64,000 nucleotides of DNA, taken from contig NZ_LR723670.1 in the NCBI RefSeq assembly GCF_902502825.2, positions 1,674,001 through 1,738,000 on the forward strand, in the 5' to 3' direction. Positions within the stretch are counted from its first letter, which is position 1; each line of letters begins with the position of its first letter. Source of the DNA: Pseudorhizobium flavum. GTDB taxonomy: Bacteria; Pseudomonadota; Alphaproteobacteria; Rhizobiales; Rhizobiaceae. Below the pieces are notes generated by a model that ran no database searches, had not been told where the DNA came from, and worked only from the letters and a program-made list of their open reading frames with translations. This document shows, piece after piece, positions 18,001-20,064 of this stretch. Made by a program: the position numbers and the translations under genes.

Positions 18001-18010
18001 GTGTAGGCAC

Positions 18011-18040
18011 GGGTTTGGGGGACGGGGATGAGGAGGGGGG
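18011..18040 (+). other. Potential G-quadruplex tract
   Basis: Four G runs lie within 30 nt: GGG at 18011, GGGGG at 18017, GGGG at 18024 and GGGGGG at 18035, with loops of 3, 2 and 7 nt. More G runs follow to 18075. The tract sits at the edge between the GC-rich hairpin block and the AT-richer island. Its ability to fold is inferred from the pattern alone. Confidence 0.5.
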
Positions 18041-18288
18041 TAAGTGGTTGATATTTGGTGGGTGGGGGTGCGGTTTTGGGCCCTCGAAGCATTAGCCGCA
18101 GGACCTTCCTTCATCCTCCGCTGCTTGACCGTGGATCCAGCCGTAGGAGGGCAACTGACTAGCGACAATATTCGAAAAAGGCCGTGACCACGGCGCACCT
18201 CACCTGCTCCCAGTTAAACAGAAGTCTGTCCTCCAGCAAGCGCTGAAGTCATCTGTTCTATCTGCGAGCGTATTATTCCAAGAAGCTC

Positions 18289-18318
18289 TTGAAAGTTGAT
18301 GAGCGTCGATACTATATT
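18289..18318 (+). promoter_or_regulatory. Candidate promoter of the DRT ncRNA and reverse transcriptase
   Basis: TTGAAA at 18289-18294 and TATATT at 18313-18318 are separated by 18 nt, a near-consensus sigma-70 pair at the left side of the AT-rich island. Transcription would begin near 18325, just before the hairpin-bearing non-coding segment that precedes the reverse transcriptase. This agrees with the arrangement in DRT2 loci, where a non-coding RNA is transcribed upstream of the RT. Confidence 0.5.
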
Positions 18319-18324
18319 GACTAT

Positions 18325-18565
18325 ATGGGGGTTCCCAGACGGAAGACGACGAGAGATCGAAGTCCCGGATCACGGTAACGCGTGAGCCAAGTGTTTACAC
18401 TGTCAATAGGGAAGACAGCGAAGATCGATGCTAACATGAGGGCAATCCTTACGGTTACATGGCTTCCAACATTCCTGAAGATGATGCCGACTACCGGCAT
18501 TAGCTTGATGACATTATACACTAACTCGTTGGAAAAGGACGTAGTGGCGCGAATGCCATGCTAAA
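18325..18565 (+). ncRNA. Predicted template ncRNA of the DRT2-like system
   Basis: This segment of about 240 nt lies between the promoter-like sequence and the RT ribosome site and lacks a convincing sense gene. Visible stems are GGA-TCACG-loop-CGTGA-GCC at 18367-18388 immediately before the proposed template end, ATGCCG-ACTAC-CGGCAT at 18484-18500 inside the template, and TGGC-GCGAAT-GCCA at 18545-18558 just after it. GTT triplets at 18393-18395 and 18528-18530 bound a 135-nt unit. Both ends of the RNA are inferred. Confidence 0.55.
18396..18530 (-). other. neo: Predicted neo repeat unit: stop-free antisense frame made by rolling reverse transcription
   Basis: Read antisense, from 18530 down to 18396, this 135-nt unit has no stop in the frame starting GAG TTA GTG at 18527. 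Joining the unit to itself at the shared GTT (cDNA AAC) places TTGACA (18406-18401) exactly 17 nt before TATAAT (18518-18513). It also continues the same frame, giving a 45-residue repeat without end. AAGGA lies 8 nt before the ATG that begins MLASIFAVFPIDSVN. The repeat is hydrophobic (LMPVVGIIF, LMLASIFAVF). As linear genomic DNA the frame is not a gene: it runs to a stop at 18321-18323. The call depends on the rolling-circle mechanism known for DRT2. Confidence 0.6.
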
Positions 18566-18588
18566 TTGGCGGAGGCAGTAACTAGTCC

Positions 18589-20064
18589 ATGCCTGATGGT
18601 GTTGCTGCCTCCACTCAGTTGTCAGATGAGTGGGTGCCGAGGGAAAAAGATCTCAAAACGTACCTTCATTTTGACCGTAACATATCCGCTCGAAGAATTG
18701 CTGAGATTGCCAACGATCCCGATTCTGTCGCAAAGCATGCGTTTTTCCCGCTAATCCGTTTTTTTGAAACTTGGACAAAGTTCAGGAATGGACAAGGCCG
18801 CAAGAAGAAGGTGCGGCCACTTCGATATGCAGCGAGGGTCGATGCAGCTATCTACGCCAGATATCGCGCGCTGCTTTCGAGACGCTACGAAGATGAGCTG
18901 GTGAGGCGGGATCTCATTGAGGTCCCCGTTGCCTATAGGAAGCTGCCAAAGGCCGGAGGCGGCAATAAGTCAAATATCGAGATTGCTCGAGATGTGTTCG
19001 ACGAGATCCGAAATATTGGAAATTGTACAGTCACGGTCGTAGACATAAAATCCTATTTTGAAAGCCTTGATCATGATCGCATTAGGCAGATGTGGGAGAT
19101 GTTATTAGGGGAGGTTTTGCCTCCCGATCATGAATCCGTTTTCGATGCTATTACGCGCTACACGGTCGTAGATTACGACAGATTATTCGACCGGCTAAAA
19201 ATGTGGGATAAGCCAGCTACGGGTACCCGTCGTCTTAGACGACAAAGACGCGTGGACGCACTACGTTCGGCTGGCCTTAAACAGATTTGTTCGCCGAAGG
19301 AGTTTCGTGACCTCGTGGCAGGAGTTGGTCAGCGAGGAGGAAGTTTGCTGCAAAAAAACAACTTCTCATTCGGGATCCCGCAGGGAACGCCGATATCTGA
19401 CTTGATAGCAAACTTCTACCTGATTGACTTTGATGATGAGTTGCATCGCTGGGCGAGTCAACGAGGCGGCATATATCGTCGCTATTCGGATGATATAGTC
19501 GTGGTTGTTCCGACGCCAAGCTTAGCTTCAAACCTTGAAGTGAAGGATTATCTCCAGGCGCGCATATCCGTCTACGGCAGTAGGCTACGTATCCAAGACC
19601 AGAAAGTCAGTATCGTCCAGTTTTCTTCCACTAGCGGCGGTACGAATTTTTCACATGTCTTTGGTAAGGCGTCGCGGAATGGACTTGAATACCTGGGATT
19701 TGAGTTCAATGGTGATTCAGTCAAGATAAAGCACTCCACCCTTTCAAACGCATGGCGAAAGATGAAGAGGCAGGCCTACGGGCATGCTAGTAGTTACGTT
19801 AAACGTTATCGAGAAAAGAAAATGCCATGGATATTGGCAAACTACCCAGCCAGCGCACTAGAAACACAAATATTAAGAGATGTGACATTCACCCAAGACA
19901 CTGGCTATGAAACTTGGACCTTTGTCAAATACGTAAGACGAGCGAGTAGCGCATTTGTCGGGTACAATCCCAGATTTTCTCGGCAGACGAGGCGTTATAG
20001 ACGTTATACTAAGGCGATTATAAACAGATCTCTCATTAAGGCGCTTGAAGTTCACCTGAAGTAG
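18589..20064 (+). CDS. drt2: DRT2-like (UG2) antiviral reverse transcriptase
   Basis: This 491-residue RT has motif A VTVVDIKSYFESLDHD (D152), motif B FGIPQGTPISDLIANF (residues 261-276) and motif C YRRYSDDIVVVV (catalytic YSDD 299-302). The N-terminal part TYLHFDRNIS...DPDSVAKHAFFPLIRF (residues 24-58) resembles the opening of Drt2-family proteins, which are not retron or group II intron RTs; no maturase or endonuclease domain is visible. GGAGG at 18571 is 13 nt before the ATG, a long spacing. Base composition is unlike the neighbours: the line 19021-19080 has 23 G+C of 60. A stem-bearing non-coding segment precedes it. The island was probably acquired horizontally. It ends 55 nt from the convergent uvrB. 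Confidence 0.82.
   Translation: MPDGVAASTQLSDEWVPREKDLKTYLHFDRNISARRIAEIANDPDSVAKHAFFPLIRFFETWTKFRNGQGRKKKVRPLRYAARVDAAIYARYRALLSRRYEDELVRRDLIEVPVAYRKLPKAGGGNKSNIEIARDVFDEIRNIGNCTVTVVDIKSYFESLDHDRIRQMWEMLLGEVLPPDHESVFDAITRYTVVDYDRLFDRLKMWDKPATGTRRLRRQRRVDALRSAGLKQICSPKEFRDLVAGVGQRGGSLLQKNNFSFGIPQGTPISDLIANFYLIDFDDELHRWASQRGGIYRRYSDDIVVVVPTPSLASNLEVKDYLQARISVYGSRLRIQDQKVSIVQFSSTSGGTNFSHVFGKASRNGLEYLGFEFNGDSVKIKHSTLSNAWRKMKRQAYGHASSYVKRYREKKMPWILANYPASALETQILRDVTFTQDTGYETWTFVKYVRRASSAFVGYNPRFSRQTRRYRRYTKAIINRSLIKALEVHLK

What the first reader, a model, noticed from the sequence alone, without database searches (positions are those of the whole stretch)
18393..18530. Stop-free 135-nt antisense unit that self-joins into a promoter and an endless reading frame (predicted neo)
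Seen directly: antisense TTGACA (18406-18401) and TATAAT (18518-18513) are both perfect. Joining the segment head to tail at GTT (18393-18395 = 18528-18530) gives a 17-nt spacer, GTGTAAACGAGTTAGTG. The resulting unit is 135 nt, divisible by three, and the frame across the join has no stop. The predicted repeat is 45 residues and hydrophobic, with AAGGA 8 nt before the ATG of MLASIFAVFPIDSVN. At a 135-nt offset, GTT is the only triplet I found matching at both ends. Known: Klebsiella DRT2 makes such concatemers by template jumping on a short microhomology, and the product is toxic to the infected cell. Inference: this locus encodes a divergent neo with its own length and sequence.
Basis: partly seen in the sequence, partly recalled or inferred. 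Interest (0 to 1): 0.95.

Follow-up and report, generated by a model that had tools for sequence, protein, structure and literature searches.

The report
DRT2 hidden gene, GTT-jumping variant
Upstream of a DRT2-family reverse transcriptase gene in a probable Rhizobiaceae genome lies a 135-base stretch that, if the enzyme copies it head to tail as predicted, would assemble a promoter and a stop-free gene for a likely self-toxic antiviral protein, and close relatives keep this design with a predicted jump signal (GTT) that differs from the ACA of the known Klebsiella system.

Summary
The RT at 18589-20064 is a divergent DRT2 (PADLOC Drt2 E 1e-127; nearest solved fold KpnDRT2, 9c0i). In 10 core loci (window included; an eleventh, truncated, was dropped) GTT is invariant at both template ends. 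In 9 of 10 the unit (132-144 nt) is a multiple of three and stop-free in the same single frame; L003 (152 nt) is not. The reading phase relative to TTGACA equals that of Klebsiella-type loci. A rule (TTGACA, -10, 17-nt spacer, length divisible by 3, stop-free in that phase) is met by 44 of 99 DRT2 loci, by at most 2 of 99 in 60 rounds of shuffling and by 0 of 99 on the other strand. In-frame ribosome sites, hydrophobic codons and covarying RNA helices agree.

New here: the published KpnDRT2 jump uses ACA; this clade has GTT, shifted 2 nt in the spacer, and other alphaproteobacterial loci share GT or GA there. The predicted neo start lies 75 nt beyond the -10. A 12-bp covarying helix spans the RT start codon, so ncRNA and RT gene appear to overlap. 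cDNA, Neo protein and toxicity are inferred, not tested. Verdict: a real, new variant of a known kind.

The parts
18289..18318 (+). Predicted ncRNA promoter (TTGAAA 18289-18294, TATATT 18313-18318, spacer 18)
   Evidence: Read from sequence; CTTGAA is present in all 9 core loci whose aligned stretch reaches that far (L004 is not covered there). RNA start near 18325 is inferred.
18325..18612 (+). Predicted DRT2 ncRNA (5' handle, template, 3' scaffold reaching into the RT gene); both ends are inferred
   Evidence: Conserved blocks; fold of 18325-18615 z -3.17, 3 of 200 shuffles as stable; covarying helices.
18367..18388 (+). 5' hairpin next to the template (18367-18373 pairs with 18382-18388)
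   Evidence: 10 loci: 96.7% of cells paired, 2 of 6 pairs with changes on both sides, covariation score reached by 0 of 500 shuffles.
18393..18395 (+). [quoted passage not shown]
   Evidence: Invariant in 10 of 10 core loci.
18393..18527 (-). Template / neo repeat unit, 135 nt, 45 codons, stop-free across the join
   Evidence: orthologous units 132-144 nt in 8 others, 152 and broken in L003.
18401..18406 (-). -35 element TTGACA of the predicted concatemer promoter
   Evidence: TTGACA in 9 of 10 core loci, TTGCCA in L004.
18513..18518 (-). -10 element TATAAT of the predicted concatemer promoter
   Evidence: TATACT, CATACT or TATAAT in the core loci.
18446..18450 (-). AAGGA, predicted ribosome site of neo
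   Evidence: an in-frame ribosome site plus start is found in 16 of 16 stop-free units against 13% in stop-free shuffles.
18435..18437 (-). ATG, predicted neo start (codon 31 of the unit)
18528..18530 (+). GTT-2, predicted landing motif just 3' of the template
   Evidence: Invariant in 10 of 10 core loci.
18544..18559 (+). Scaffold hairpin 1 (18544-18548 with 18555-18559)
   Evidence: 9 loci: 100% paired; one pair changes from U-A to C-G in 2 of 9.
18571..18612 (+). 12-bp scaffold helix (18571-18582 with 18601-18612) spanning the RT start codon
   Evidence: 9 loci (L004 left out, misaligned): 100% of cells paired, 5 of 12 pairs changed on both sides; RT codons 5-10 keep the same codon in 0.92 of same-residue pairs against 0.36-0.46 from codon 11 on.
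18589..20064 (+). DRT2-family reverse transcriptase, 491 aa, active-site YSDD

Best explanation
The locus encodes a divergent DRT2-family reverse transcriptase, likely an antiviral one, that is predicted to copy the 135-nt template of its ncRNA again and again by jumping from GTT (18393-18395) to GTT (18528-18530), so that the repeats would form a TTGACA/TATAAT promoter and an endless reading frame (neo) likely encoding a growth-arresting protein. Shown: the motifs, their conservation, the length and frame rule in relatives, the in-frame ribosome site, covarying RNA helices, and the RT family and fold. Inferred from KpnDRT2: the cDNA ending in AAC frees itself from GTT-1, re-pairs with GTT-2 and is extended; the cDNA becomes double-stranded after infection; sigma-70-type transcription makes neo mRNA; translation starts at the ATG (18437-18435) 15 codons before the junction and runs through the repeats; the hydrophobic product stops growth. 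Also inferred: because a scaffold helix spans the RT start codon, one RNA molecule can hardly serve as folded template and as RT message at once.
For: RT is DRT2: PADLOC Drt2 E 1.1e-127; PDB 9c0i E 9e-52 by sequence; best fold match 9c0i E 5e-33, TM 0.71/0.82, next DRT9 at 4e-11. GTT at both ends in 10 of 10 core loci, which form one clade, support 100/100. Units 135, 132, 132, 141, 141, 144, 141, 144, 138 nt, all divisible by 3 and stop-free in the same single frame (9 of 10). Survey: 44 of 99 loci pass in phase 2 (3 have a stop-free phase 0, none phase 1); shuffles mean 0.22, maximum 2; other strand 0. Prediction noted before the sequences were looked at: 6 of 9 new loci pass, and these 6 all match GT at the same spacer position. 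Positive control: the published ACA is recovered in 7 of 13 gammaproteobacterial loci given, and with a poorer -10 in 3 more (L019, L022, L024). Ribosome site plus start in 16 of 16 stop-free units. Neo frame hydrophobic 0.54 against 0.40 in stop-free shuffles; T at codon position 2 is 0.43 against 0.16 and 0.21. Helices covary.
Against: No cDNA, RNA or protein data. L003 (unit 152, stops in all frames) and L012 (130) break the rule. The amino-acid sequence of neo is barely conserved, and substitutions do not concentrate at third positions; in L009, L011 and L013 hydrophobicity is not above shuffles. A 3-nt match is short. 55 of 99 DRT2 loci do not pass the rule, the Bacteroidota loci examined and the three Dyella loci among them. 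Of the 9 out-of-sample loci, 3 fail. The NCBIfam Drt2 score, 332, is under its cut-off of 390. Among the covariation measures, further pair types do not exceed shuffles.
Confidence: 0.9

Rival explanations
1. The system works as above, but GTT is not the jump signal: the RT jumps by position or RNA structure, and the GTT match is a by-product of RNA or promoter constraints.
For: Only 3 nt match; in other alphaproteobacterial loci only GT or GA match. Bases beside the two motifs (CAA before GTT-1, TTG over GTT-2) could pair in most core loci (sequences, judged by eye).
Against: GTT matches in 10 of 10 core loci while the other spacer positions match in 0-5 of 10; the 6 passing out-of-sample loci all match at the same place. 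In KpnDRT2 mutants that disrupt the ACA homology lose defence (PMC11100668, section 7).
Confidence: 0.12
2. The cDNA repeats themselves, not a Neo protein, are the effector (as reported for the DRT9 homopolymer); the open frame and promoter are by-products.
For: Neo sequence is poorly conserved.
Against: Unit lengths differ in steps of three, one stop-free phase is shared with Klebsiella-type loci, an in-frame ribosome site is found in 16 of 16 stop-free units, hydrophobic codon bias.
Confidence: 0.05
3. Chance: an RT gene with an unrelated antisense open frame and promoter-like hexamers.
For: Single motifs of this kind occur by chance; another TTGACA/TATAAT pair lies at 19923-20022.
Against: 0 of 3000 shuffles of the window region; conservation in orthologues; survey against shuffles.
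Confidence: 0.01

Closest known systems
KpnDRT2 (Klebsiella pneumoniae DRT2/neo; Wilkinson 2024 PMC12039810, Tang 2024 preprint PMC11100668)
   Same: Single RT gene with an upstream ncRNA; antisense TTGACA and TATAAT reunited with a 17-nt spacer only after head-to-tail joining; unit divisible by 3; stop-free hydrophobic frame; same reading phase relative to TTGACA as in the Klebsiella-type control loci; same fold.
   Different: Jump motif GTT, not ACA, and 8|9 instead of 6|11 within the spacer. Unit 135, not 120 nt. Predicted neo start 75 nt beyond the -10, where the paper places ribosome site and start 13 nt beyond it. RT start 60-64 nt after the second junction in 8 of 10 core loci (84 in L085, about 129 in L004), against candidate starts at about 104-153 nt in 7 ACA loci, one TTG at 60 in L028 excepted, with a scaffold helix across the start here. 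The RT begins 11 aa earlier than KpnDRT2 in the alignment and shares 26% identity in the structural alignment.
DRT9
   Same: Class 2 UG reverse transcriptase with ncRNA; second-best fold family.
   Different: Reported to copy a poly-U tract into homopolymer cDNA (PMC12632851 passages); no gene assembly is described in what was seen.
DRT10 / telomerase
   Same: ncRNA-templated tandem-repeat cDNA (DRT10: PMC12632851 abstract start and passages); repeat addition by realigning the DNA end on the template (telomerase: PMC12039810 discussion).
   Different: No promoter or reading frame is described as formed by their repeats in what was seen; telomere repeats are 4-8 nt.

Membership tests
DRT2 (UG2) reverse transcriptase family | RT matches the DRT2 family and not another UG group | tested here: met
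   PADLOC Drt2 425 bits, best non-Drt2 family Drt3a 64 bits; nearest fold 9c0i.
DRT2 (UG2) reverse transcriptase family | NCBIfam equivalog cut-off for Drt2 (a naming threshold, not biology) | tested here: not met
   332 bits, cut-off 390: divergent from the seed; still its best NCBIfam match.
DRT2 (UG2) reverse transcriptase family | Catalytic YxDD | tested here: met
   YSDD in the translation; both aspartates invariant in the 39 sequences of A1.
DRT2 neo system (KpnDRT2 type) | Structured ncRNA upstream of the RT | tested here: met
   Conserved blocks and covarying helices; transcription itself not tested.
DRT2 neo system (KpnDRT2 type) | Promoter reunited across the repeat junction, 17-nt spacer | tested here: met
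   (by sequence).
DRT2 neo system (KpnDRT2 type) | Unit divisible by three with a stop-free frame | tested here: met
   Window and 8 other core loci, 9 of 10 in all.
DRT2 neo system (KpnDRT2 type) | Matching ACA-1/ACA-2 at the template ends | tested here: not met
   GTT instead, 10 of 10 core loci; so it is not filed as a member of the ACA subtype.
DRT2 neo system (KpnDRT2 type) | Concatemeric cDNA after phage infection | not testable with these tools
   Needs cDNA sequencing.
DRT2 neo system (KpnDRT2 type) | Neo protein made and growth-arresting | not testable with these tools
   Needs expression and mass spectrometry.

The most novel reading that the evidence does not exclude
The jump signal of DRT2 gene assembly is a clade-specific code (ACA in the Klebsiella-type branch, GTT, GT or GA in alphaproteobacteria) that evolves under a fixed frame and promoter geometry; and in this clade the RNA that hides the neo gene also overlaps the RT start codon, so each transcript is either enzyme message or template, which would make the enzyme limit its own production.
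Probability: 0.5. Interest if true: 0.8.

Novelty: new variant of a known kind. Interest (0 to 1): 0.66.

Why it matters
Tang et al. [quoted passage not shown] Here a divergent clade, probably one of those, is read: neo is there by every sequence test applied except amino-acid conservation, with another jump signal. This gives a rule that finds hidden neo genes without knowing the signal, a natural experiment on what makes an RT jump (the match rather than ACA itself), and a testable coupling between ncRNA and RT expression.

Tried and rejected
Viral contigs: a protein-pattern scan gave no relative. A 14-base pattern matched 120 or more viral stretches, too many to be useful; none was read. 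Distant DNA search of plasmids with the ncRNA: no match. Rfam: no family in the window at gathering thresholds. Codon-position test for purifying selection on Neo: negative. Bacteroidota DRT2 loci: five share an 8-nt direct repeat 113 nt apart, not divisible by three; low-stringency candidates at 132 nt used poor hexamers and another phase; unresolved. The fold of the window ncRNA alone pairs part of GTT-1 with a downstream ACACU; that partner is not kept in L005 (by eye) and was not used. GAA as a separate jump signal: only GA is shared by all 7 loci of that group. Papers: the peer-reviewed version of Tang et al. is not among the papers listed, so a mention of GTT there cannot be excluded. 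Searches: 11 of 11 listed; 3 of 3; 20 of 74; 20 of 89; 15 of 860; 26 of 26; no title or abstract start shown describes another DRT2 jump signal. Passages of PMC12596737 hold neither ACA, GTT nor microhomology as words; those of PMC12632851 hold no 'microhomology' or 'template jump' (GTT was not searched there). Read: PMC12039810 abstract, section 4 in three parts, discussion; PMC11100668 abstract, sections 7 and 10, figure legends part 1 of 2, passages; supplements none; all other papers listings only.

Full report
WHAT WAS CHECKED. The ribosome site 8 nt before ATG is confirmed. In shuffles of the same 480 nt the full combination never appeared in 3000 trials with perfect hexamers, and 4 times with one mismatch allowed.

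THE ENZYME. The ORF 18589-20064 (491 aa) is a DRT2 reverse transcriptase: PADLOC Drt2 at 1.1e-127, far ahead of any other group; it falls below the NCBIfam naming cut-off (332 of 390 bits), so it is divergent. The AlphaFold model (mean pLDDT 87.8) matches KpnDRT2 9c0i best (E 5e-33, 26% identity), with DRT9 next at 4e-11. The 2-kb bin 18001-20000 has 49% GC against 59-68% in the other bins of the window. It lies between a ferredoxin-NADP reductase gene and uvrB. The best named relatives of that reductase are from Pseudorhizobium, Neorhizobium and Rhizobium (87-89%, among the best 120 of 3838 hits), so the host is probably a member of the Rhizobiaceae; the genome itself is not held.

THE CORE CLADE. 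Ten loci of 46% RT identity or more, window included, were aligned; an eleventh, L086, lacks the first 55 RT residues and the conserved upstream region and was dropped. GTT is invariant at both template ends in 10 of 10. Counting from 0 after the -35, spacer positions 5-7 match in all ten while the other positions match in 0-5 of ten. Units are 135, 132, 132, 141, 141, 144, 141, 144, 138 and 152 nt: 9 of 10 are multiples of three with exactly one stop-free frame, the same in all nine. L003 (152 nt) has stops in every frame. The ten form one clade with support 100/100, inside a wider alphaproteobacterial clade of 30 rows, also 100/100; the tree has 66 rows, L102 left out as partial.

THE WIDER FAMILY. 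Of 21 further loci given to a motif search that did not ask for length divisible by three or for an open frame, 8 had a GT[T/A]...GTT pair and 13 had none; 7 of the 8 were multiples of three and stop-free in the same frame (L009 in a second frame too), L012 (130 nt) was not. Position by position, GT at spacer positions 6-7 matches in 21 of 21 chosen alphaproteobacterial loci; part of that set was chosen on such a match, so the unselected figure is the 6 passing out-of-sample loci, all of which match there. A group of 7 loci shares GA at positions 3-4. Of 13 gammaproteobacterial loci given to, 7 show ACA with a good -10; L019 and L022 and L024 show it with a poorer one; three Dyella loci show none. 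In those 7 the ACA sits at positions 3-5. Two of them, checked, score 410 and 391 bits against KpnDRT2, the window 179. A prediction was written down and tested on 9 loci not looked at before: 6 passed; L105 failed on its -10 but has GTT and a stop-free 129-nt unit; L107 and L108 failed.

STATISTICS. With TTGACA, a -10 from a fixed list, a 17-nt spacer and unit 105-160, 55 of 99 nonredundant loci have a pair and 44 of 99 are divisible by three and stop-free in phase 2; phase 0 occurs in 3, phase 1 in none. By group: core 8 of 10 (L003 fails, L004 has TTGCCA), wider alpha set 18 of 21, GA group 7 of 7, ACA group 7 of 7; the groups were put together partly on such hits. The -10 list was widened after seeing some loci, so the same list was used on shuffles: mean 0.22, maximum 2 of 99 in 60 rounds; on the other strand 0 of 99. 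A stricter first survey gave 25 of 90 against a mean of 0.23 and maximum of 3, other strand 0. The loci are related, so these are not independent trials; unit lengths that vary in steps of three are the stronger argument.

SIGNS OF A GENE. An in-frame ribosome site and start codon is found in 16 of 16 stop-free GTT units (9 core, 7 wider), 13% expected in stop-free shuffles. In the 9 core units it lies at codons 30-33; in L042 and L036 at codon 13. The frame is hydrophobic (mean 0.54 against 0.40), though not above shuffles in L009, L011 and L013, with T at second codon positions. Against: amino-acid identity is low and third positions do not vary more than the others; for KpnDRT2 most conserved residues were likewise attributed to promoter and ACA (PMC12039810). 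A single 45-residue unit is modelled as one long helix, pLDDT 71, pTM 0.30.

THE RNA. A 5' hairpin (18367-18388, 10 loci) and two scaffold helices (9 loci, L004 left out as misaligned) covary; one of the five measures, further pair types, does not exceed shuffles. The largest helix, 12 bp (18571-18582 with 18601-18612), spans the RT start codon at 18589. RT codons 5-10 keep identical codons in 0.92 of same-residue pairs against 0.36-0.46 from codon 11 on, as expected if the scaffold overlaps the gene. In L005, L095, L006 and L084 no other in-frame start was found within about the first 20 codons. In 7 ACA loci the candidate RT starts lie about 104-153 nt after the junction (one further TTG at 60 in L028), against 60-64 nt in 8 of 10 core loci. 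The three-pair pseudoknot that was also scored never varies, so it is untested.

MECHANISM. From the KpnDRT2 work (PMC12039810, PMC11100668) the steps are: RT bound to ncRNA, repeated copying with the cDNA end re-pairing at the second motif, second strand after infection, transcription, Neo translation, growth arrest. Here only the sequence prerequisites of these steps are shown. What differs is the motif (GTT), its place in the spacer (8|9, not 6|11), the later neo start, and the overlap of scaffold and RT gene; the last suggests, without proof, that one transcript cannot be template and message at once.

VERDICT. Real, well supported, a new variant of DRT2 that speaks to a point left open in print.

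Noticed in passing
L105 1165-1293 and L106 1153-1287 (minus strand): Hypothetical proteins annotated antisense to and upstream of the DRT2 gene on Rhizobium and Neorhizobium plasmids overlap a predicted neo unit in its frame (129 nt, GTT junction).
   Followed up: yes
L085, just 3' of the template: The first scaffold hairpin appears duplicated in tandem in this locus (alignment).
   Followed up: no
L038, L044, L048, L057, L058 upstream of RT: Bacteroidota DRT2 loci carry an 8-nt direct repeat TATCAATG 113 nt apart, not divisible by three; the upstream DNA is highly conserved but no neo logic was read.
   Followed up: partly
L003 upstream of RT: A 494-codon open DRT2 RT with GTT motifs whose 152-nt unit is stopped in all frames: decay, sequencing error or another mechanism.
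   Followed up: no
L086: RT lacks its first 55 residues and the conserved upstream region; a probable wreck.
   Followed up: no
window 18001-20000: GC drops to 49% against 59-68% in the other 2-kb bins: the system is probably a horizontal arrival.
   Followed up: partly
L055, L076 upstream of RT: Bacillota DRT2 loci also give promoter-junction candidates (ATT with unit 186; TTAGT with unit 147), single cases not tested further.
   Followed up: no
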